From assembly GCA_031292515.1 (NCBI GenBank), contig JARLGZ010000269.1:434001-498000 (forward strand): a DNA stretch of 64,000 nt, read 5' to 3'. Positions 18,046 through 27,577 of this stretch are shown here, piece by piece. The translations under genes and the position numbers were made by a program. Every line of letters starts with the position of its first letter. Within the stretch, counting starts at the first letter, position 1. The notes beneath the pieces are model-generated. The model saw only the letters and a list, made by a program, of their open reading frames with translations, had not been told where the DNA came from and searched no databases. The stretch is from Puia sp. Its GTDB lineage: Bacteria > Bacteroidota > Bacteroidia > Chitinophagales > Chitinophagaceae.

Positions 18046-18753
18046 ATGGAAAACGATACAGGTCACCAGACAAATATATTAATCATCGAAGACGAAGAGC
18101 GGGTGGCCTCTCTCATAAAGAAAGGCCTGGAAGAACTCGGTCTTTCCGCGACGATCGCCCCGGACGGAACCGAAGGCAGGAGACTGGCGTTAAACAATGG
18201 GTTCGACCTCGTCATCACCGACATCCTCCTGCCGGGTCTGAATGGCGTCGACCTCTGCAGGGAACTCAGACAGGAATTGCCGGACCTGCCCATTATCATG
18301 CTGACTGCCCTCGGCACAACGGACGACAAAGTCGAAGGCTTCGACGCGGGAGCAAACGATTACCTGGTAAAACCATTCGACTTCAGGGAACTGTACGTTC
18401 GCATCCGCGAATTATTAAAGCGGAAAGCAAACAGGAACCAAACCGGAGAAAAAAAATTGCTGAAGGTCGCGGACCTCGAAATGGATCTGAAGACCCGGAT
18501 CGTCCAGCGGAATAAAAAAGAGATCAACCTTACCCGCAAGGAGTTCAGATTGCTCGAATACATGATGATCAATAAAGGCAGGGTCCTGTCGAGGGCCGAG
18601 ATCGCCGAAAACGTCTGGGAAACCTCCTTCGACACGGGAACCAATTTTATCGACGTTTACATTAACTACCTGCGAAGGAAAGTAGACAAAGAACATGGAG
18701 TAAAACTGATCCACACCCGGCCGGGAGTGGGCTTTATCTTTAAAGAGGGCTGA
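18046..18753 (+). CDS. OmpR/PhoB-family response regulator
   Basis: 235 residues: a receiver domain (about 10-125) with acidic pocket E16/D17 and phosphoacceptor D59 (VITDILLPG), then a winged-helix DNA-binding domain (about 140-234) ending HTRPGVGFIF. An in-frame start at 17947 exists, but its extra residues lack a domain; ATG at 18046 directly precedes the receiver fold. The kinase gene follows 3 bases after the stop. The likely target is the redox cluster that begins at 20267, by position only. Confidence 0.9.
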   Translation: MENDTGHQTNILIIEDEERVASLIKKGLEELGLSATIAPDGTEGRRLALNNGFDLVITDILLPGLNGVDLCRELRQELPDLPIIMLTALGTTDDKVEGFDAGANDYLVKPFDFRELYVRIRELLKRKANRNQTGEKKLLKVADLEMDLKTRIVQRNKKEINLTRKEFRLLEYMMINKGRVLSRAEIAENVWETSFDTGTNFIDVYINYLRRKVDKEHGVKLIHTRPGVGFIFKEG

Positions 18754-18756
18754 CCA

Positions 18757-20124
18757 ATGAAGATCAGGGTAAAATTGACACTGCTATTTTCTGCGTTGTT
18801 TGCACTGTTGCTGCTTGGATTTTCCCTGGTGATCTATTTCTCGAACGCCAACGGAAGGGAAGAAGAATATTTTAAAAGACTCAGACAACTGGCCATCACA
18901 AAGACCAACCTGCTGCTGGATGCCAAAGTGCAGCCCGCGGTCCTCCAGTTGATCTATAAGAACTCACTGAATTCCCTGCCACAGGAAGAAGTGGCCGTAT
19001 TCGACACGGGTTTTAACCTGCTTTATCATGACGCGGGCGATATCGACAGAGTCAAAGAGACCCGGGGAATGATCGATAGCATTATCGCCCTGAAAGAGAT
19101 CCATTTCTATGTCGGCGACCTCCAGGCGATAGGATTTGTATATCCGTATGAAGGCAAGACCTATGTGATCACCGCGGCGGCGAAAGATGATGACGGTCTC
19201 AAAAAACTCAAGACACTCCGCTTCGATCTGGCAGCGGGCTTCGTGATCGCTATCCTGCTCACCGCGTTTGCCGGGATCTTCTTCTCCTGGAATGCCCTGC
19301 GCCCGGTATCCGAAATGGTCGGCAAAGTCGGAAAAATCTCCGCCTCCCACCTCGACCTCCGTATCGGGGAAGGCAATGGCAAGGACGAGATCGGCGAACT
19401 CGCCATCACCTTCAACCGCATGCTCGACCGGCTGGAACATTCGTTTGAAGCCCAGAAGGAATTCGTATCGAATATATCCCATGAACTCAGGACACCCCTG
19501 GCGGCGATCATCGCCGAATTGGAAATCTCCGCCATCAAAGAACGCTCTCCCCGGGAATACCGCGAGATGATCTCCCTGATCCTGCAGGACTCCCGCAAGC
19601 TTTCCCGCTTGTCGAATGACCTGCTCGACCTCGCAAAAGCCAGCTACGACCAGGCACAGATCGCATTTAAAGAACTCCGGCTCGATGAAGTATTGCTGGA
19701 TGCCCGCCAGGGTGTCCTCCAATCCAATCCCTCCTATGGGGTAAAGATCATTTTTGAACGGGAGATAGAAGAAGGGGATTTTATAGCCATAAAAGGCAAC
19801 GAATACCTGTTGAAGGTAGCCTTCGCCAACCTGATCGAGAACGGCTGCAAATTTTCCCCCGATCACCAATGCATCGTGACGATCAACTTCCGTGAAAAGA
19901 CTACTTTGCTTCGCTTCTCGGATCGGGGGATCGGGATCGCTGAGGAAGATCTGAAAAAAATATTTACCCCCTTTTACCGCGGGGAAAACAGGAAATATGC
20001 CCAGGGTCATGGCATCGGCCTCTCCCTGACCCAAAAGATCATCCACCTTCACCAGGGACGGATTACCGTCGAATCCAGGCTCCGGGAAGGCACTGCTTTT
20101 CTCGTAGAACTCTCCCAGGCCTGA
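18757..20124 (+). CDS. Sensor histidine kinase
   Basis: 455-residue membrane kinase. Membrane helices at about 7-28 and 158-178 flank an extracytoplasmic sensor of about 125 residues. HAMP, the HisKA box with H242 (SNISHELRTPLAAI) and a HATPase domain with NLIENGCKFS, DRGIGI and GHGIGLSL follow. Architecture resembles CusS-type kinases, but the sensor has no recognisable metal motif. It pairs with the regulator 3 bases upstream. Confidence 0.9.
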   Translation: MKIRVKLTLLFSALFALLLLGFSLVIYFSNANGREEEYFKRLRQLAITKTNLLLDAKVQPAVLQLIYKNSLNSLPQEEVAVFDTGFNLLYHDAGDIDRVKETRGMIDSIIALKEIHFYVGDLQAIGFVYPYEGKTYVITAAAKDDDGLKKLKTLRFDLAAGFVIAILLTAFAGIFFSWNALRPVSEMVGKVGKISASHLDLRIGEGNGKDEIGELAITFNRMLDRLEHSFEAQKEFVSNISHELRTPLAAIIAELEISAIKERSPREYREMISLILQDSRKLSRLSNDLLDLAKASYDQAQIAFKELRLDEVLLDARQGVLQSNPSYGVKIIFEREIEEGDFIAIKGNEYLLKVAFANLIENGCKFSPDHQCIVTINFREKTTLLRFSDRGIGIAEEDLKKIFTPFYRGENRKYAQGHGIGLSLTQKIIHLHQGRITVESRLREGTAFLVELSQA

Positions 20125-20202
20125 TTTCCAATACTGGATTTTCTAATTTTTTTCTAATGAATTTATAATAGATCTCTAACAGCCCTTTGAAAAGCAGTAG
20201 TC

Positions 20203-20210
20203 TAATTTTG
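20203..20210 (+). promoter_or_regulatory. Candidate -7 promoter element of the redox cluster
   Basis: TAATTTTG matches the Bacteroidota primary-sigma -7 element TAnnTTTG and lies in the gap between the kinase gene and the outer-membrane protein gene (start 20267). The TTTG at 20186-20189 is too close to be a standard -33 element, so the assignment is tentative. Confidence 0.35.
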
Positions 20211-20225
20211 CCCGTATTTGCGATC

Positions 20226-20255
20226 ATCGTAGAACATCGCAGAACATCACAGAAC
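20226..20255. repeat. Three tandem 10-base units before the start at 20267
   Basis: ATCGTAGAAC, ATCGCAGAAC and ATCACAGAAC follow one another without gaps in the presumed leader of the redox cluster. The 10-base step equals about one DNA turn. Confidence 0.7.
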
Positions 20256-20266
20256 CGGCATTGGCT

Positions 20267-21103
20267 ATGAAGACTTTTTTTTGGTGGGCCCTGTTGGGAG
20301 GGCTCGCTCCTTTTATTGGCAGAGCCCAGGACAATTACGAGATCCAGGTATATGCTTCCCCGACGGTGGGGAAAGATACGACGATGGTCGAGTTGCACAG
20401 CAACTATAGCTTTATAGGAAACGGAGCAGGCGGTGGCGTTGTGTCTACCAACCATATGGACCGGGAGACCATCGAGATCACCCACGGCTTCACACCCTGG
20501 TTTGAACTTGGCTTTTATATTTTTAACGACCTGGCCGACTTGGGACGTTCCAACTATGTGGGCAGCCACATCCGTCCCCGTGTCATGGCCCCGGCCACCT
20601 GGCACTGGCCGGTTGGCGCAAGCATCTCCTTCGAGGGAGGCTTCGTAAAGGACGGCTACGACCCGGATACCTGGACCCTGGAGATCCGGCCCATCGTCGA
20701 TAAACAGCTGGGTCCCGTCTACCTGGCACTCAACCCCGTCGTCGATTTTACCTTCAAAGGTGCCGATGCCGGACGTGGGGCAATATTCGCCCCTGATTTC
20801 AAATTCAGCTACCAGGTTGGAAAAGTCTGGGCATACGGCATCGAATATTACGGATCCTGGGGACCCTTCTCGAAATTCGATCCCATCGATATCCAGCAGC
20901 ATCAACTTTTTTTTGCCGTCGACGCCGACTTCGACCCGCGCTGGGAATTCAACGCCGGCTATGGATTCGGGCTGACACCCGGCATCGACAGGAGCATTTT
21001 CAAATTCATCCTGGGCAGACGCTTCGGAGGCGGCAAACACCCGCCACACACCGCGCGCATGGCCGGGCAATCAAAAGCAATGTCTTATAATCCATTTAAA
21101 TGA
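20267..21103 (+). CDS. Predicted outer-membrane beta-barrel, family not recognised
   Basis: 278 residues with a signal peptide (MKTFFWWALLGGLAPFIGRAQ). The rest alternates short aromatic-rich strands (VYASPTVGKDTTMVELHSNY, WHWPVGASISFEGGF) and ends in RSIFKFILGRRF. This suggests a small outer-membrane barrel, but I cannot name the family. A start two codons upstream (20261) is possible. Its stop overlaps the ATG of the cytochrome b gene (21100), so translation is coupled and a functional link is likely. Confidence 0.7.
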   Translation: MKTFFWWALLGGLAPFIGRAQDNYEIQVYASPTVGKDTTMVELHSNYSFIGNGAGGGVVSTNHMDRETIEITHGFTPWFELGFYIFNDLADLGRSNYVGSHIRPRVMAPATWHWPVGASISFEGGFVKDGYDPDTWTLEIRPIVDKQLGPVYLALNPVVDFTFKGADAGRGAIFAPDFKFSYQVGKVWAYGIEYYGSWGPFSKFDPIDIQQHQLFFAVDADFDPRWEFNAGYGFGLTPGIDRSIFKFILGRRFGGGKHPPHTARMAGQSKAMSYNPFK

Positions 21104-21756
21104 GTAGTATAGATAGCTCGCCCGTCGCCTTTAATGAGACCCATTCCCCGGCAATCAGGATTTGGCACTGGACTTTTTTTATCGTGCTGACCGCTTCCCT
21201 GACAACCGTTTTCTTTGGGTCCACCCTCTTCAAAACCCGGGACAACATCGGTTTTGTACAGACACAGTTGCAGGATAAGGGGGTGACACTCAGTAAGGAC
21301 CAGGCCCGCGCGGTAGCGCACGGCTTTAGCGACAAGCTATGGGATCTCCACACCTGGATCGGATACGTCTTGTGCGGCCTGCTCCTCAGCCGGTTCATTA
21401 TCGAGATCGCTCAGCCCGGTGAAGAAAAACTAAGACACAGAATGCGAAACGCGCTTGGCTATCGTCCGGACGATGCCGGCGGCAAAGCGGACAGAAAACA
21501 TTATATCCTTGTCAAATCCACCTATCTGGCCTTTTATACCTTGTTCACCGTCATGGCATTGACAGGCCTGGGTCTCGCTTTTGAAGACACCCCGCCCTTT
21601 AAACAATGGCACCGCACGCTGGGACAAATCCACAGTTTCGTGCAGTACTTTATCTACGCGTTCATCCTGTTGCACCTCGTTGGTGTCGTAAGAGCCGACC
21701 TGGGCAAACGAAGGGGCATCGTGTCAGGCATGATACACGGGAAAAAAAGATATTGA
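21100..21756 (+). CDS. Cytochrome b/b6-type membrane protein
   Basis: 218 residues with four membrane segments and histidines placed as heme ligands: H23 (IRIWHW), H84 (WDLHTWIGY), H178 (LGQIHSF) and H192 (ILLHLVGV). This is the pattern of NiFe-hydrogenase-type and related diheme b cytochromes that pass electrons between quinones and extracytoplasmic partners. The ATG overlaps the preceding gene by 4 bases. Downstream are a thioredoxin-like protein and a flavin transferase, so an envelope electron-transfer role is inferred. The donor and acceptor are unknown. Confidence 0.88.
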   Translation: MSSIDSSPVAFNETHSPAIRIWHWTFFIVLTASLTTVFFGSTLFKTRDNIGFVQTQLQDKGVTLSKDQARAVAHGFSDKLWDLHTWIGYVLCGLLLSRFIIEIAQPGEEKLRHRMRNALGYRPDDAGGKADRKHYILVKSTYLAFYTLFTVMALTGLGLAFEDTPPFKQWHRTLGQIHSFVQYFIYAFILLHLVGVVRADLGKRRGIVSGMIHGKKRY

Positions 21757-21855
21757 GAGAAAGAGATATTGAGAGAAAGATACATTGAGAGAAAGATTGA
21801 AAGAAGGAAATGTCGGAAGAAGGAAATGTCGGGAGAAAGGCATCCCGGGAGAAAG
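21749..21855. repeat. 16-base-periodic repeat tract
   Basis: AGATATTGAGAGAAAG occurs at 21749-21764 and 21764-21779 and in variant form at 21780-21795. AAGAAGGAAATGTCGG is duplicated exactly at 21801-21816 and 21817-21832. CGGGAGAAAG recurs at 21830 and 21846. The tract begins at the end of the cytochrome b gene and separates it from the thioredoxin-like gene. The 67-codon open frame inside it (21785-21988) is made of this repeat and is not called. Confidence 0.85.
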
Positions 21856-21992
21856 AACATTGACCGGAAAAGATATCGTAAAAAAAGAAACGCCGGAAAC
21901 GATAAAAATCGGAGTTGAGGCAACTGATTCGTTTTTTTATCGTATTCTAATAAAAAGGAATATCAGCACGACCGGAAGAATATCCTAATATT

Positions 21993-22442
21993 TTGCAGTA
22001 TATGTTAAAAATAGCCTGGTTTACAATCCTCATCACCTGCTTCTCCGCTGCAGACTGGCATACGGATCTGAAAGAAGCGGAACAACTGGCGACAAAAGAA
22101 CATCGTCATATCCTCCTGAATTTTTCCGGAAGCGATTGGTGCGGCCCCTGCATGCGGCTTCGAAAGGAAATTTTTGAAAGCGCCGTTTTCAAAGAGATGG
22201 CCGACACGCAACTTGTGCTGGTGAACGCAGACTTTCCGCGGAATAAGAAGAACCAGCTGTCGGCGCAGCAGCAACGACTGAACGATGCGATGGCAGACCG
22301 GTATAATTCACAAGGCAAATTCCCCTATACCGTTTTATTGGACGCAAACGGGAGAGTCCTGCGCGAATGGGACGGCCTTCCAAATATGACGCCCGAAGCA
22401 TTCACGGTCGACGTCAGAAATGGCATCTATGCCGACAGATAA
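21993..22442 (+). CDS. Thioredoxin-like exported protein
   Basis: 149 residues. A short hydrophobic N-terminus (LKIAWFTILITCFSA) suggests export. The thioredoxin fold has active site WCGPC (C50 and C53) preceded by NFSGSD, and the cis-proline loop KFPYTVLLD. An ATG three codons on (22002) is equally possible as start. Such proteins reduce disulfides in the periplasm. The 3' end overlaps the apbE start. The likely partner is the Cys-tailed DUF4266 lipoprotein two genes downstream (inference). Confidence 0.87.
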   Translation: MQYMLKIAWFTILITCFSAADWHTDLKEAEQLATKEHRHILLNFSGSDWCGPCMRLRKEIFESAVFKEMADTQLVLVNADFPRNKKNQLSAQQQRLNDAMADRYNSQGKFPYTVLLDANGRVLREWDGLPNMTPEAFTVDVRNGIYADR

Positions 22443-23391
22443 CGATAACGATCGCAAGAATAGTCAGCCGGCAGTCTATCACAAGAGCCTGTTGCTGATG
22501 GGCAACAATTTCCAGATCAGCGCGGTCGGAGAAAGCGAACACTGGGCCTTCGAAAGGATCGACGCAGCCATCGCGGAGATCCGGCGAATCGAAAGCCTGC
22601 TTACGACCTACCGGGATGACAGCGAGACCAACCTGATCAACAGAAACGCAGGTGTCGCGCCCGTGACCGTCAGCGCGGAAACTTTCGGGATCATCCGGCG
22701 CTCGATCAGGATATCGGCGATCACACAGGGCGCCTTCGATATCAGCTATGGTTCGGTAGACAAACGATTGTGGAATTTCGATACCCATATGCAAAGACTT
22801 CCCGACAGGGAGACGGCAAAAAAAATGGTGCGGCTGATCAACTACCGCAATATCCTCCTCGACCCGGAGAAAACGACCGTCTTCCTGAAAGAGAAGGGCA
22901 TGCGCATCGGTTTCGGAGGCATCGGGAAAGGCTATGCGGCGGAAAGAGCCAAAAGCATCATGATGGAACGGGGCGCCGACAGCGGAATCGTAAATGCTTC
23001 CGGCGATCTGGCCGCCTGGGGATACCAACCGGACGGAAAACCCTGGACCATCGGGATCGCCAACCCCAATTCGGCGGGACAGATCTTTTCTTATATGAAT
23101 ATCACCAATATGGCCCTGGCCACATCCGGCAACTATGAGAAATACATCATGATCGACGGAAAAAAATATTCGCACACGATCGACCCGAGGACCGGCCTCC
23201 CCATCAGGGGGATCAAAAGCGTGACCATCATCTCTCCGAATGCGGAGGTGGCGGACGCCATGGCCACCCCCGTCATGATCATGGGCATCCGCGCCGGTCT
23301 CGATATGATCGACCAGATCAAAGAAATCGAAGCCATCGTCATCGACGACGACGACCGGATACATACATCGAAAAATATTCACTTCACATAA
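22420..23391 (+). CDS. apbE: ApbE-family FAD:protein FMN transferase
   Basis: 323-residue flavin transferase that attaches FMN to a Ser/Thr of target proteins. Family motifs: AFDISYG, GGIGKGYAAERA, VNASGDLAAWG, ATSGNYEKY, HTIDPRTGLP, and the Mg-binding ADAMATPVMIMG. No signal peptide or lipobox is visible: the N-terminus is MASMPTDNDNDRKNSQ, so the enzyme appears cytoplasmic unless exported otherwise. The gene overlaps the thioredoxin-like gene by 23 bases. The natural acceptor is unknown; the next gene product is a candidate. Confidence 0.92.
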   Translation: MASMPTDNDNDRKNSQPAVYHKSLLLMGNNFQISAVGESEHWAFERIDAAIAEIRRIESLLTTYRDDSETNLINRNAGVAPVTVSAETFGIIRRSIRISAITQGAFDISYGSVDKRLWNFDTHMQRLPDRETAKKMVRLINYRNILLDPEKTTVFLKEKGMRIGFGGIGKGYAAERAKSIMMERGADSGIVNASGDLAAWGYQPDGKPWTIGIANPNSAGQIFSYMNITNMALATSGNYEKYIMIDGKKYSHTIDPRTGLPIRGIKSVTIISPNAEVADAMATPVMIMGIRAGLDMIDQIKEIEAIVIDDDDRIHTSKNIHFT

Positions 23392-23430
23392 AAACCGGTT
23401 CCGGGAAAGGATTCAAATAAAAAAACTGTC

Positions 23431-23649
23431 ATGACAAAAAAAATGAAATGGAGCGCCATACTGCTCGGAGGGATGCTGGCTGCATCCTGTGCCCACGTAA
23501 AAGAATACCAGAAAAGCAGGATCAACGACTCGGAGATGACCCTGGCAAACAGGAAGGTCGAGAAGACAGAACTAAATGCACAATCCTACCGGGAAGGCTC
23601 CTCTGGCGCCAATGGCGGCAAGACCGGCGGCGGATGCGGATGCAACTAA
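23431..23649 (+). CDS. DUF4266 small lipoprotein with Gly/Cys tail
   Basis: 72-residue precursor. The lipobox LAASC makes C20 the probable lipidated residue. The middle is polar and charged, and the C-terminus is REGSSGANGGKTGGGCGCN with C69 and C71. The EGSSGA segment (E55 to A60) resembles the ApbE acceptor motif Dxx[ST][GA][AT] apart from Glu for Asp, making S58 a possible FMN site. The tail cysteines could bind metal or be a thioredoxin substrate. It sits between apbE and DUF3570, the usual company of this family. Function unknown. Confidence 0.85.
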   Translation: MTKKMKWSAILLGGMLAASCAHVKEYQKSRINDSEMTLANRKVEKTELNAQSYREGSSGANGGKTGGGCGCN

Positions 23650-23674
23650 TAACTAATCAACCGAAATACACGGC

Positions 23675-24976
23675 ATGAAAAAAATCTGTCTCACCGTAGT
23701 CGGCATGTATTGCATGCTGCTCCACGCATTTTCACAGGTTAGCCCCAAAGACTCTTCCTCCTACGCACCCAGAAAATTGAAACTGGATGAAGTGAACCTC
23801 GTCTCCAGCTATTACAACCAGACCGCCGACAAATCCGCGGTCATGGGCGGCAGGACCGACGCCAAAGGAATCGGGGACGTGACCGATCTGGCAAATGGCC
23901 TCGATATCACCTTCATCGGCTGGGATGGGAAGAAACGGAAAAATACCCTGACCGCTGGCCTCGGCGTCGACTACCATACCGCGGCTTCGCAGGCTTACGT
24001 AGACTCCAGCGGACGCGCCCGCAACAATGGCACCCGGATCTATCCTACGCTGGACTGGACGATCGAAAATGAGAAGACGGGAACAGGCTTCGGTCTCGGC
24101 GCTTATTATTCCGCCGAACACAACTACTACCACTCCATCGGCCTGAATACCTCTTTTTCAAAGAAGACGAAAAACAACGGCGAGTTCAGTACAAAACTCA
24201 CCGGTTACTTCGACAATATCAAGATGATACGTCCCTCTGAGTTCGTACCCATCGATTCGATAAAGACGGTCACCTCGACGCCCGCGGATAGCATCGTCTA
24301 CATCACTACCGCCAGCGGCCGCACCGAAGCCGTTAACTATGGCACCGGCCAGGTAGTGAGCAAAGGCTCCAGACCGGTCATCCCGTCGAGATCCCGGGAT
24401 ACCTATACCGCGTCCTTCTCCTTCTCCCAGGTCATCAACGCCCGCCTGCAAGGCAGCATTACCACCGACCTGGTCTACCAGAGCGGCTATCTCGGGCTGC
24501 CCTTTCACAGGGTCTATTTCAATACGGGAAAGGACACCATAGAGAATCTGCCCTCGCAACGCTTTAAATTTCCCATCGGTCTCCGCCTGAACTATTTCCT
24601 CGGGGACAGGGTCATCCTGCGAACTTATTATCGGTTCTATGTCGATAACTGGGGACTGGTATCGCATACCGCAAGCCTGGAAGTGCCGGTGAAGATTACC
24701 CCATTCTTCTCCATATCGCCCTTCTACCGCTATTATACACAGACAGCCGCCAACTATTTCGCCCCCTATGAGAAGCACTCCGAACAGGATACCTACTACA
24801 CCAGCAACTATGCCCTGGCGGCTTTTTCCAGCCAGTCATTCGGCGCCGGCCTGCGACTCGCTCCGCCACGAGGGATCCTGGGCAGCCTGAATATGATCGA
24901 AATCCGTTATGGCCATTACACACAGACCACCGACCTGGTCTCCGACGTCATTTCTCTCAACCTGAAATTTAAATAG
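23675..24976 (+). CDS. DUF3570 outer-membrane beta-barrel
   Basis: 433 residues with a signal peptide (MKKICLTVVGMYCMLLHAFS). Long alternation of amphipathic strands and Gly/Asn/Ser turns follows (YHTAASQAYVDSSGR, FGLGAYYSAEHNYY, LRLNYFLGDRVILRTYYRF), ending in ISLNLKFK, a typical barrel end. DUF3570 proteins are found with DUF4266 and ApbE; their molecular role is not established. Its stop codon overlaps the start of the next gene. Confidence 0.85.
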   Translation: MKKICLTVVGMYCMLLHAFSQVSPKDSSSYAPRKLKLDEVNLVSSYYNQTADKSAVMGGRTDAKGIGDVTDLANGLDITFIGWDGKKRKNTLTAGLGVDYHTAASQAYVDSSGRARNNGTRIYPTLDWTIENEKTGTGFGLGAYYSAEHNYYHSIGLNTSFSKKTKNNGEFSTKLTGYFDNIKMIRPSEFVPIDSIKTVTSTPADSIVYITTASGRTEAVNYGTGQVVSKGSRPVIPSRSRDTYTASFSFSQVINARLQGSITTDLVYQSGYLGLPFHRVYFNTGKDTIENLPSQRFKFPIGLRLNYFLGDRVILRTYYRFYVDNWGLVSHTASLEVPVKITPFFSISPFYRYYTQTAANYFAPYEKHSEQDTYYTSNYALAAFSSQSFGAGLRLAPPRGILGSLNMIEIRYGHYTQTTDLVSDVISLNLKFK

Positions 24977-26262
24977 TGTGGCGGATCGTCAAAAACAGCA
25001 GCCGGATTGCCGATGCGGTGGGCCGGGTTTTTAAAACCAGCGGCGGAGTCCTCGCGAGCTGTCTTTTTTGCAGCCTCACGGCCCGGACGCAGCCGGGGTC
25101 TCCAAACCCGTCGAATACATCCAATCCGCCGGCAAAAGGTATTTTCAAACAATCCGATCTGATCGGCATTTTTCATACGGCCTTTCACATCCCTGCCCGC
25201 AAACCCGTGAGAGTCGAAGGCAAAACCATCTATTTCTCGTTCGTTCCCGGCGGAGACCAGACCGGCTCTCCCGGAACCGCCTTCCTCACATCCACGACCG
25301 CCGCCTTTTACGCCGGCGACCGGAACAGCTCTTTTCTGTCGAATATCACCTTTTCACCTTATCTGACCTTTAAAGGCCGCTTTGGATATACGCTTCGCTC
25401 CAACATCTGGACCAATCGGAATGAGTGGGATATCCTGGGAGATATCCGCTTCCTCTATTACCCGCAATATACCTGGGGCCTGGGCGGAAACCCGGCTCAT
25501 AGCAACAGCCTCCTGGTCTCCTACAAATACGTCCGTTTCTACCAGACCTTCCTGAAAAGGATACGTCCCTATCTTTTTGCCGGATTTGGATACCATTTCG
25601 ACGACCACTTCGATATGGACACGATGGGCGATTCGACCCTCCTCCAGCGATTCACGGGCTACCACTACGGTACCGGCAGCAGTGAAAACTCCCTGTCATC
25701 GGGTATCTCCGTAAACCTGTTGTATGACTCCCGCAGAAACCCGGTCAACCCCATCCCGGGTTTCTATGGCAACCTCGTCTATCGGTTTAACCCCACATTC
25801 CTCGGGAGCAATTCTTACTGGCATTCCCTGTACGCCGATATCCGCCGGTATATTCCCTTTAGCCATACCCGGCAAAATATGCTGGCTTTTTGGACTTTCT
25901 ACTGGACCACCCTCAGCAATCACGCACCCTACCTGGACCTCCCCAGCCTGGGCTGGGACCCCTACCAGCAGCGGTCTGGGAGGGGATTCGAACAGAACCG
26001 CTACCGCGGTAACCGGCTTTTCTACCTCGAAGGGGAATATCGCCGGGATCTTACAGCCAATGGATTACTCGGATTCGTATTGTTCTCCAATCTCAATGCC
26101 GTCTCGGAACCCGTCAGTCACCGGTTTGAATATCTGCACCCTGCCGGTGGCGGCGGCCTGCGTATCCGGTTCAACAGGCAGTCCGGCACCAACCTGGCCC
26201 TTGACTATGGTTTCAGCAGGAACTATAGCGCCTTTTACCTGAATCTCGGAGAAACATTCTGA
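24976..26262 (+). CDS. BamA/TamA-type outer-membrane barrel without POTRA domains
   Basis: 428 residues with a GTG start inside the DUF3570 stop, so translation is coupled. A signal-like segment (about 22-40) is followed directly by a 16-strand-type barrel region (SGISVNLLYDSRRNPVNPIPG is the conserved strand and turn of surface-antigen barrels) and a terminal aromatic strand NYSAFYLNLGETF. The about 45 residues between signal and barrel are too short for even one POTRA domain. It may be a surface-exposed channel or assembly factor for this cluster (inference). Confidence 0.8.
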   Translation: MWRIVKNSSRIADAVGRVFKTSGGVLASCLFCSLTARTQPGSPNPSNTSNPPAKGIFKQSDLIGIFHTAFHIPARKPVRVEGKTIYFSFVPGGDQTGSPGTAFLTSTTAAFYAGDRNSSFLSNITFSPYLTFKGRFGYTLRSNIWTNRNEWDILGDIRFLYYPQYTWGLGGNPAHSNSLLVSYKYVRFYQTFLKRIRPYLFAGFGYHFDDHFDMDTMGDSTLLQRFTGYHYGTGSSENSLSSGISVNLLYDSRRNPVNPIPGFYGNLVYRFNPTFLGSNSYWHSLYADIRRYIPFSHTRQNMLAFWTFYWTTLSNHAPYLDLPSLGWDPYQQRSGRGFEQNRYRGNRLFYLEGEYRRDLTANGLLGFVLFSNLNAVSEPVSHRFEYLHPAGGGGLRIRFNRQSGTNLALDYGFSRNYSAFYLNLGETF

Positions 26263-26332
26263 CGGTTGTGTCTTTTAGGCGACGGGGTCCTGCTGGTCCC
26301 CGGGATCATTTGTGACTTATCTTTACCGATCT

Positions 26333-27577
26333 ATGTCCCACACAGCCATCTGGATCCTCTCATTGATATCGATAGCAGGCGTCATCATCCGGCCTTTCAA
26401 AACACCGGAAGTCGCGTGGGCCGTCACCGGCGCCGTACTTTTGGTCCTGCTCGGTCTGATATCCCCTTCCGACGGCCTCAGGGGAATCGCGAATGGGACC
26501 GATGTCTACCTGTTTTTGACCGGGATGATGCTGCTCGCAGAGACGGCGCGCGAAGAGAAACTCTTTGACTGGCTGGCGGCTCACGCCACCAAATGGGCCA
26601 AGGGATCCCCCAAAAGACTGTTCCTCCTGATCTATGGGGTAGGAGTCGTGGTCACCGCCTTTTTATCGAATGATGCCACAGCCGTGGTCCTGACCCCCGC
26701 CGTAGCCGCGGCCGTCAAAGCGGCGAAAGTGGAGAAACCACTGCCTTACCTGTTAATTTGCGCATTCATCGCCAACGCGGCTTCTTTCCTCCTGCCTATC
26801 TCCAACCCGGCGAACCTGGTGATCTATGGCCGCCAACTGCCGCCCCTGCTTGAGTGGATTCCGCAATATATCCTGCCCTCGGTCTTCGCCATCGTCGTCA
26901 CCTGTCTGGGATTGTATTTTACACAGAGAAAGGAGTTGAAAGGGCAAGTGGAAACCGATATCCCGGTACCCGCTCTGTCGGGAGGAGCAAAGACAGCGCT
27001 TGCAGGCATCGCGGTAACAGCATTTGTCCTGCTCATCTCCTCGGCCCTCGATAGTCCGCTGGGTCTCCCGACCGCGATTACAGGGGTGCTGGTATCGGCC
27101 ATCGTCCTTCTTTGGACAAAAAAGAAGCCCTGGACCATACTGAAAGGAATATCCTGGTCCGTGATTCCACTCGTGGCAGGCCTGTTTGTAATCGTCGAGG
27201 CGCTCAATAAGACCGGGCTGATCCGTACCCTTGTTTCCACCCTTCAGCAAAGTGTCGGCCGTTCTGTAACCGCTGCCGCCTGGGGCAGCGGCATCGTCAC
27301 CGCCTTTGCCGCCAACCTCATGAACAACCTGCCTGCCGGCCTCATAGCAGGCAATACCATCCAGGCCGGGCAGGTGCCCGCCATCATAAAAACAGCAACC
27401 CTGATCGGTATAGATTTGGGGCCCAATCTCTCCATAACCGGTTCTCTCGCCACCATCCTCTGGCTGGTGGCCTTGCGGCGGGAAGGACAGCACATCAGCG
27501 CCTGGACCTTCCTGAAACTGGGCTGCCTGGTCATGACCACAGCCCTCCTGTCTTCCCTCGCAGCCCTTTGGTTGTGA
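26333..27577 (+). CDS. ArsB/NhaD-superfamily permease
   Basis: 414 residues with about eleven to twelve membrane segments. Family signatures: LTGMMLLAETAREEKLFDWLA, FLSNDATAVVLTPA and NLMNNLPAGLIAG. Best guess is an anion or arsenite efflux pump of the ArsB type. No arsR, arsC or other ars gene is nearby, so the substrate is open. A GTG at 26312 would add seven residues; ATG at 26333 is preferred. Confidence 0.8.
   Translation: MSHTAIWILSLISIAGVIIRPFKTPEVAWAVTGAVLLVLLGLISPSDGLRGIANGTDVYLFLTGMMLLAETAREEKLFDWLAAHATKWAKGSPKRLFLLIYGVGVVVTAFLSNDATAVVLTPAVAAAVKAAKVEKPLPYLLICAFIANAASFLLPISNPANLVIYGRQLPPLLEWIPQYILPSVFAIVVTCLGLYFTQRKELKGQVETDIPVPALSGGAKTALAGIAVTAFVLLISSALDSPLGLPTAITGVLVSAIVLLWTKKKPWTILKGISWSVIPLVAGLFVIVEALNKTGLIRTLVSTLQQSVGRSVTAAAWGSGIVTAFAANLMNNLPAGLIAGNTIQAGQVPAIIKTATLIGIDLGPNLSITGSLATILWLVALRREGQHISAWTFLKLGCLVMTTALLSSLAALWL

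What the first reader, a model, noticed from the sequence alone, without database searches (positions are those of the whole stretch)
18046..26262. Two-component-controlled envelope redox cluster with ApbE, DUF4266, DUF3570, cytochrome b and thioredoxin-like genes
Nine same-strand genes run from a regulator/kinase pair through a predicted barrel, a four-histidine cytochrome b, a WCGPC thioredoxin-like protein, an FMN transferase, a tiny Cys-tailed lipoprotein, a DUF3570 barrel and a POTRA-less BamA-type barrel. Several are translationally coupled (20267/21100, thioredoxin/apbE, DUF3570/BamA-like). The parts suggest electrons passing from quinol via cytochrome b to an extracytoplasmic flavin or thiol acceptor at the outer membrane. 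Sequence shows the gene set; the pathway is inference. DUF3570 and DUF4266 have no established function.
Basis: partly seen in the sequence, partly recalled or inferred. Interest (0 to 1): 0.75.

Follow-up and report, generated by a model that had tools for sequence, protein, structure and literature searches.

The report
Metal-type switch driving flavin-barrel operon
In soil bacteria of the genus Puia, a sensor-regulator pair related to ones that sit beside magnesium and heavy-metal transporter genes appears to switch on, through a four-repeat DNA site, a gene set predicted to place a covalently attached flavin on the outer face of the cell and, in some species, to feed it electrons from a membrane cytochrome b.

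Summary
The nine genes are there as described. The core (thioredoxin-like, ApbE, DUF4266, DUF3570) is not new: Meheust et al. 2021 (PMC8238504) described it and showed that a DUF3570 protein is flavinylated by ApbE. Three things go beyond that. (1) In Puia the cassette is joined by a 12-strand barrel (13 of 24 Puia genomes that have this barrel) and by a PF01292 cytochrome b (7 of 10 Puia genomes that have it), not by DsbD; outside Puia I saw neither beside it. (2) A very likely operator of the response regulator: four TTCTAA-type repeats, period 11 bp, at 20141-20179, then TAATTTTG after exactly 23 bp. Such arrays stand before the barrel in 6 of 6 loci with this two-component pair, before stray DUF3570 genes in 2 genomes, and before mgtA/mgtC or a CusA-type pump. 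The barrel-linked kinases form one clade beside the mgt-linked ones. (3) DUF3570 models as a 16-strand barrel; its 26 invariant residues, flavin site S105 included, all fall on the predicted outer half. ApbE lacks a signal peptide, so FMN is probably attached in the cytosol. Electron path, inducing cue and final acceptor remain inference.

The parts
18046..18753 (+). OmpR-type response regulator
   Evidence: Pfam Response_reg and Trans_reg_C; 72-80% identical orthologues before barrel280 in five other Puia genomes
18757..20124 (+). Sensor histidine kinase
   Evidence: HAMP, HisKA, HATPase_c; best NCBIfam match is heavy metal sensor kinase TIGR01386, under its cut-off (208 of 292.6 bits); barrel-linked clade
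20141..20179 (+). Probable operator: four direct repeats, TTCTAA-type, period 11 bp
   Evidence: Found here, 0.00 expected in 100 shuffles; in 6 of 6 loci where this two-component pair precedes barrel280
20203..20210 (+). TAATTTTG, probable -7 promoter box (the Bacteroidota consensus TAnnTTTG is recalled, from no call)
   Evidence: TAnnTTT exactly 23 bp behind the array in 13 of 17 sites beside or near targets, 10 of the 14 unselected sites; background 0.0014 per position; 0 of 14 evaluable other repeat sites
20267..21103 (+). barrel280: predicted 12-strand outer-membrane channel (ATG at 20267; ORF opens at TTG 20261)
21100..21756 (+). Cytochrome b561-type membrane protein
   Evidence: PF01292 76.6 bits; H23, H74, H84, H134, H178, H192 invariant in 10 aligned relatives
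22002..22442 (+). Secreted thioredoxin-like protein, WCGPC
   Evidence: Thioredoxin_7; N-terminal hydrophobic stretch
22420..23391 (+). ApbE FMN transferase without signal peptide
   Evidence: PF02424 277 bits; no hydrophobic N-terminus; aligned over 309 residues to solved ApbE 7esa
23431..23649 (+). DUF4266 small lipoprotein ending GGGCGCN
   Evidence: PF14086 65 bits; conserved tail in the alignment
23675..24976 (+). DUF3570 outer-membrane barrel, predicted FMN acceptor S105 (DYHTAAS, residues 99-105)
   Evidence: PF12094; A104 and S105 invariant in 32 of 32; 16-strand model, pLDDT 82.6
24976..26262 (+). Omp85/BamA-like barrel without POTRA domains (weakly linked)
   Evidence: Weak Omp85 matches under cut-off; directly behind DUF3570 also in G137:C302

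Best explanation
A DsbD-free variant of the published ApbE/DUF4266/DUF3570/thioredoxin flavinylation cassette, wired to its own two-component switch. Proposed working: the kinase, of a family otherwise found beside mgtA/mgtC and CusA-type pumps, senses a metal- or envelope-related cue (inferred). The regulator binds the four 11-bp repeats at 20141-20179 and turns on barrel280, cytochrome b and, by read-through, the cassette (control well supported by sequence, not by experiment; read-through inferred). ApbE, lacking a signal peptide, attaches FMN to S105 of DUF3570 in the cytosol before Sec export (inferred from the missing signal, the conserved site, and the published flavinylation of a signal-truncated DUF3570 in E. 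coli). DUF3570 then sits in the outer membrane with flavin and invariant residues at its outer end (from the model plus usual barrel topology). Electrons would pass from quinol through cytochrome b, then the thioredoxin-like protein and the CGC-tailed DUF4266 lipoprotein, to the flavin and on to an acceptor at the surface, possibly a metal (inferred; no step of this flow is shown).
For: Published: DUF3570 is an ApbE substrate (PMC8238504, passages). Cassette: of 20 long loci in the order, DUF3570 in 20, ApbE in 19, Trx separate in 15 and apparently fused to ApbE in 2; of 44 further DUF4266 loci, DUF3570 in 44, ApbE in 40, Trx in 39. Cytochrome b beside cassette genes in 7 of 10 Puia genomes that have it, barrel280 in 13 of 24. 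DsbD present in 57 of 57 DUF4266 genomes but never near DUF4266. Operator and promoter spacing. Kinase clade 100/99. Flavin site invariant in 32 of 32. 26 of 26 invariant DUF3570 columns on the outer half, against 22 outer and 39 inner for barrel280. Hydrophobic N-terminus on 53 of 53 Trx and 66 of 67 DUF3570 but 2 of 44 ApbEs in this family.
Against: Most cassettes have no cytochrome b; 30 of 36 other named-genome loci... counted exactly: 31 of 37 loci of this cytochrome are unlinked, and in three Puia genomes that have it (G127, G139, G146) it is not by the cassette. A 245-bp gap separates cytochrome b from Trx here. The two-repeat rule finds no operator before any of 55 Trx genes. The window's DUF3570 lacks the strict [S/T]GA[S/T] motif: site 1 is TAAS and site 2 is lost. 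Overall mean conservation is equal on both halves of DUF3570 (0.51 and 0.50), so only the fully conserved positions are lopsided; the loop just behind S105 (106-115) has pLDDT under 50. Hydropathy is not a signal-peptide predictor. No metal, cue or acceptor was tested.
Confidence: 0.5

Rival explanations
1. Two neighbouring units, not one machine: a two-component/barrel280/cytochrome b unit for metal or envelope homeostasis, and an ordinary flavinylation cassette that draws electrons elsewhere (for instance from the unlinked DsbD), side by side in part of Puia.
For: Barrel280-cytochrome b pairs without cassette exist (G146:C7); barrel280 is widespread (7292 of 8000 scored candidates match); most cassettes lack both; all 57 DUF4266 genomes have an unlinked DsbD; 245-bp gap between the two halves.
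Against: Cytochrome b runs directly into DUF3570 in G140 and G148, and into Trx with 39-79 bp gaps in G135, G137 and G149; the operator also precedes stray DUF3570 genes in G000 and G137.
Confidence: 0.33
2. DUF3570 is a surface enzyme rather than an electron outlet: the flavin in the outer mouth of the barrel catalyses a reaction on one substrate, and the Trx/DUF4266 pair serves folding or repair.
For: All 26 invariant residues cluster on one half, as expected for an active site; the small conserved CGC tail and WCGPC protein fit thiol chemistry.
Against: No fold match to an outer-membrane enzyme stands out; only general barrels are listed. Association with cytochromes (cytochrome b here; Haem_bd gene behind DUF3570 in 5 genomes) fits electron transfer better.
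Confidence: 0.12
3. The extra genes are an accident of gene order in this genome only.
For: Cytochrome b and BamA-like genes are absent from most cassettes.
Against: Recurs in six other Puia genomes at 51-70% identity of the cytochrome, with conserved operator and kinase clade.
Confidence: 0.03

Closest known systems
DsbD-type flavinylation clusters (ApbE, DUF3570, DUF4266, Thioredoxin_7) of Meheust et al. 2021, PMC8238504
   Same: The four core genes, and a DUF3570 with a conserved flavinylation-like site; the paper also counts 316 such clusters without DsbD
   Different: DsbD is replaced next door by a cytochrome b561 and a 12-strand barrel; own two-component switch with operator; ApbE without signal peptide; one relaxed site instead of two strict ones. 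The main text of the paper holds no 'cytochrome b', 'barrel' or two-component control (term counts; its supplements were not seen)
Two-component systems controlling mgtA/mgtC (PhoPQ is the textbook case; recalled)
   Same: The kinase is in one family with kinases beside mgtA/mgtC, with the same repeat array and spacing in front of the target genes
   Different: The target here is a redox gene set; the ligand is unknown; relation to PhoPQ was not tested
Porin-cytochrome conduits such as MtrCAB (recalled)
   Same: Would also bring electrons to the surface through an outer-membrane barrel
   Different: No multihaem cytochrome among the nine genes; the cofactor would be a flavin bound to the barrel itself; no homology was tested
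COG4313 outer-membrane channel (4rl8) and FapF (5o68)
   Different: 6-10% identity; function not transferable

Membership tests
ApbE/DUF3570/DUF4266/Trx flavinylation cassette (Meheust 2021) | The four genes adjacent on one strand | tested here: met
   also in most relatives
ApbE/DUF3570/DUF4266/Trx flavinylation cassette (Meheust 2021) | DUF3570 with two [S/T]GA[S/T] sites | tested here: not met
   Window has DYHTAAS at 99-105 (A104, S105 invariant in 32 of 32) and SSGRA at the second place; many relatives keep the strict second site
ApbE/DUF3570/DUF4266/Trx flavinylation cassette (Meheust 2021) | DUF3570 carries covalent FMN | not testable with these tools
   Needs co-expression and mass spectrometry
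DsbD-type flavinylation system | DsbD (PF02683) in the cluster | tested here: not met
   DsbD of G000 lies on contig C80, the cassette on C137; in 57 of 57 genomes with DUF4266 no DsbD near it
Prokaryotic cytochrome b561 (PF01292) | Profile match over cut-off and conserved haem-ligand histidines | tested here: met
   76.6 bits, cut-off 30.1; six invariant histidines; haem binding not tested
ApbE FMN transferase | Profile match over cut-off | tested here: met
   277.3 bits; solved relatives
Periplasmic (lipoprotein) ApbE | N-terminal secretion signal | tested here: not met
   No hydrophobic N-terminal stretch by a hydropathy rule
OmpR-type regulated promoter | Direct repeats at 11-bp period upstream of the target in orthologous loci | tested here: met
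Mg- or metal-responsive two-component system | Response to a metal | not testable with these tools
   Only kinship and neighbours: 6 of 15 family kinases near mgtA/mgtC, 2 by CusA-type pumps
Omp85/BamA | Profile match over cut-off | tested here: not met
   Pfam 19.2 of 24 bits, NCBIfam 63.4 of 200

The most novel reading that the evidence does not exclude
A haem-free outer-membrane electron outlet: a barrel is loaded with covalent FMN by a cytosolic ApbE before export, shows the flavin at the cell surface, and is fed from the quinol pool by a cytochrome b561 through a thioredoxin-like protein and a CGC-tailed lipoprotein, all under a metal-responsive two-component switch that split from an mgtA/mgtC regulator.
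Probability: 0.25. Interest if true: 0.85.

Novelty: new variant of a known kind. Interest (0 to 1): 0.62.

Why it matters
What the DUF3570/DUF4266 flavin cassette does is open. Here it comes with a sensor of a metal-transport family and a readable operator, which gives inducing conditions to try and a regulon to map. The predicted outward-facing conserved site turns a flavinylated protein of unknown role into a testable surface-reductase hypothesis, and the signal-less ApbE raises the possibility that covalent FMN is carried through Sec on an unfolded barrel.
Full report
What is there. The window lies in a 7.3-Mb genome (G000) of the genus that holds Puia dinghuensis, family Chitinophagaceae (G127:C3 has the length of a Puia dinghuensis CGMCC 1.15448 contig). 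The thioredoxin-like gene most likely starts at ATG 22002. A tenth same-strand gene, a CitMHS/ArsB-type transporter at 26312-27577, begins 49 bp behind.

The core is known. Meheust et al. 2021 (PMC8238504; abstract, outline and passages seen; not the whole text, no supplements) describe clusters of ApbE, DUF3570, Thioredoxin_7 and DUF4266, 285 clusters with DsbD (221 of them with DUF4266) and 316 without, and show that a Chlorobium luteolum DUF3570 is flavinylated by its ApbE at two [S/T]GA[S/T] sites. In an even draw over the order, DUF4266 occurs in 21 of 119 genomes, own included. Of the 23 hits in other genomes I read 20 at length: DUF3570 in 20, ApbE in 19, a separate Trx in 15, an apparent Trx-ApbE fusion in 2, cytochrome b or barrel280 in none. 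In 57 genomes with DUF4266, all have a DsbD but none near DUF4266; the nearest on a shared contig is about 0.29 Mb away.

What is added in Puia. Among 98 relatives, DUF4266 is in 42 (26 of 33 Puia genomes), this cytochrome b in 16 (10 Puia) and barrel280 in 31 (24 Puia). I fetched 60 more loci: 44 hold DUF4266 (DUF3570 in 44, ApbE in 40, Trx in 39) and 16 surround barrel280 or cytochrome b alone. Cytochrome b with barrel280 stands beside cassette genes in G135, G137, G140, G148, G149 and G150, besides this genome. G135 ends at its contig edge behind Trx and ApbE and carries DUF4266/DUF3570 on another contig; G149 lacks ApbE; in G140 cytochrome b runs into a second DUF3570 that converges on the quartet; in G148 it runs into DUF3570; G150 has only a short ApbE piece behind it and, at a second place, a cytochrome fragment. 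Barrel280 alone is beside the cassette in G120, G121, G125, G132, G136 and G143, and beside an ApbE in G127. Not linked in Puia: cytochrome b of G127, G139 and G146. Of 38 PF01292 matches over cut-off in the 57 genomes, 7 are linked (my count). In named GTDB genomes 37 loci encode this cytochrome; 6 are linked, the same six genomes (contig lengths agree). On the tree the linked copies cluster; a single origin is neither shown nor excluded. The BamA-like gene directly follows DUF3570 only here and in G137:C302, and two genes behind DUF3570 in G137:C382; it lies within the fetched stretch but further off in G136, G140 and G150, and the family has many copies a genome, so its membership is weak.

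Two-component control. Orthologues of the regulator (72-80%) and kinase (67-84%) precede barrel280 in five other Puia genomes. Behind the kinase lies an array of four direct repeats, period 11 bp (20141-20179); 0.00 are expected in shuffled window sequence. A strict pattern finds 14 sites in 42 genomes, none for the reversed control: 6 before barrel280 (all six loci with this pair; in G137 some 630 bp before it), 2 before another DUF3570 gene (G000:C27, G137:C382), 3 before mgtC or mgtA, 1 before a CusA/CzcA-type RND pump, 1 in G140:C222 pointing at a c-type cytochrome gene and away from a Trx-ApbE quartet, 1 (G150:C255) before an unassigned gene. Ten of these 14 have TAnnTTT exactly 23 bp behind the array; with three mgt sites picked it is 13 of 17, against 0.0014 per position. 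The 14 other evaluable repeat sites have none at +23: the repeat type is shared by other regulators, the spacing marks this family. A kinase search gives 15 members including the window's own, the others 54-84% identical, then a drop to under 40%: 6 by barrel280, 6 near mgtA and/or mgtC (in G101:C11 about 6 kb off), 2 by CusA-type pumps, 1 at a contig edge. All six MgtA proteins pass the NCBIfam cut-off, as do both RND pumps. In the tree the barrel-linked kinases group at 100/99, with the contig-edge row inside and the mgt-linked ones outside; the root is only a midpoint. I infer a metal- or envelope-related cue; the ligand is unknown.

Flavin site and topology. DUF3570 reads DYHTAAS at 99-105; A104 and S105 are invariant in 32 of 32 aligned proteins. 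A second site, [S/T]GAS ten residues on, is kept in a short subtype and lost here (SSGRA). The AlphaFold2 model (pLDDT 82.6) has 16 barrel strands by my count; S105 is in the loop behind strand 3, whose next residues are of low confidence. With both chain ends in the periplasm, as is usual, that loop is outside. All 26 invariant columns, and 47 of 54 at 90% or more, lie on the outer half (255 of 412 residues; P 2e-6 and 1.5e-5); within strands alone 10 of 103 outer and 0 of 111 inner. Barrel280 treated alike has 22 outer and 39 inner invariant columns. Mean conservation does not differ between the halves. The test takes residues as independent, the sides come from strand order, not coordinates, and the 32 proteins are all from one order.

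Where FMN is attached. By a hydropathy rule (not SignalP) a hydrophobic N-terminus is on 53 of 53 Trx and 66 of 67 DUF3570 proteins, but on 1 of 28 Puia and 1 of 16 other-genus ApbEs of the family; the first is a 503-residue ApbE of another subtype, the second an apparent Trx-ApbE fusion. In other families it is 6 of 14 (sequences). So in this family ApbE is probably cytosolic. Cytosolic ApbE is known for a soluble target in Klebsiella (PMC12052999, passages), and the published DUF3570 test used signal-truncated proteins in E. coli. PMC11334425 (section 5 and passages) does not name DUF3570.

Judgement. The core is a known kind; the regulated, cytochrome-b-bearing, DsbD-free Puia form with its own operator is a new variant. 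The electron path is a hypothesis.

Noticed in passing
G000:C27 (L283:6386-7591) and G137:C382 (L284:6338-7546): A second, stand-alone DUF3570 gene behind the same four-repeat array; it keeps DYHTAAS, and in G000 also the second site TGAS. A small secreted-looking protein follows it in both, and in G137 a BamA-like gene after that.
   Followed up: partly
L279, L280, L281, L282, L285, L317: Two-component pairs of the same family near mgtC and/or mgtA with the same promoter layout: a candidate magnesium regulon of Chitinophagaceae.
   Followed up: partly
L026:7410-8819 and L037:7503-8933: Apparent Trx-ApbE fusion proteins (469 and 476 aa) with a hydrophobic N-terminus, so ApbE is probably periplasmic there.
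   Followed up: no
L030, L153, L155, L156, L208, behind DUF3570: A small protein of one cluster with CxxCH behind DUF3570 in five genomes; the L030 copy matches Haem_bd PF14376.
   Followed up: no
L192:7551-8708 and cluster c37 in L191, L196: A chromate transporter (PF02417, tested on L192) near the barrel/cytochrome/cassette genes of three Puia genomes.
   Followed up: no
window 26312-27577: CitMHS/ArsB-type transporter 49 bp behind the cluster on the same strand.
   Followed up: no
window 21757-21900: A- and G-rich spacer with loosely repeated gagaaag units between cytochrome b and Trx.
   Followed up: no
L255:956-1396: A c-type cytochrome gene (PF13442, PF00034) behind a four-repeat array, divergent from a Trx-ApbE-DUF4266-DUF3570 quartet in G140:C222.
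   Followed up: partly
DUF3570 alignment: Two DUF3570 subtypes in Puia: about 430 aa with one flavin site, and about 400-426 aa with two.
   Followed up: partly
L265, L258, L268, L261, L270, L272, L248: Other TTCTAA-type repeat arrays with TAnnTTT at +11 instead of +23, probably used by related regulators.
   Followed up: no
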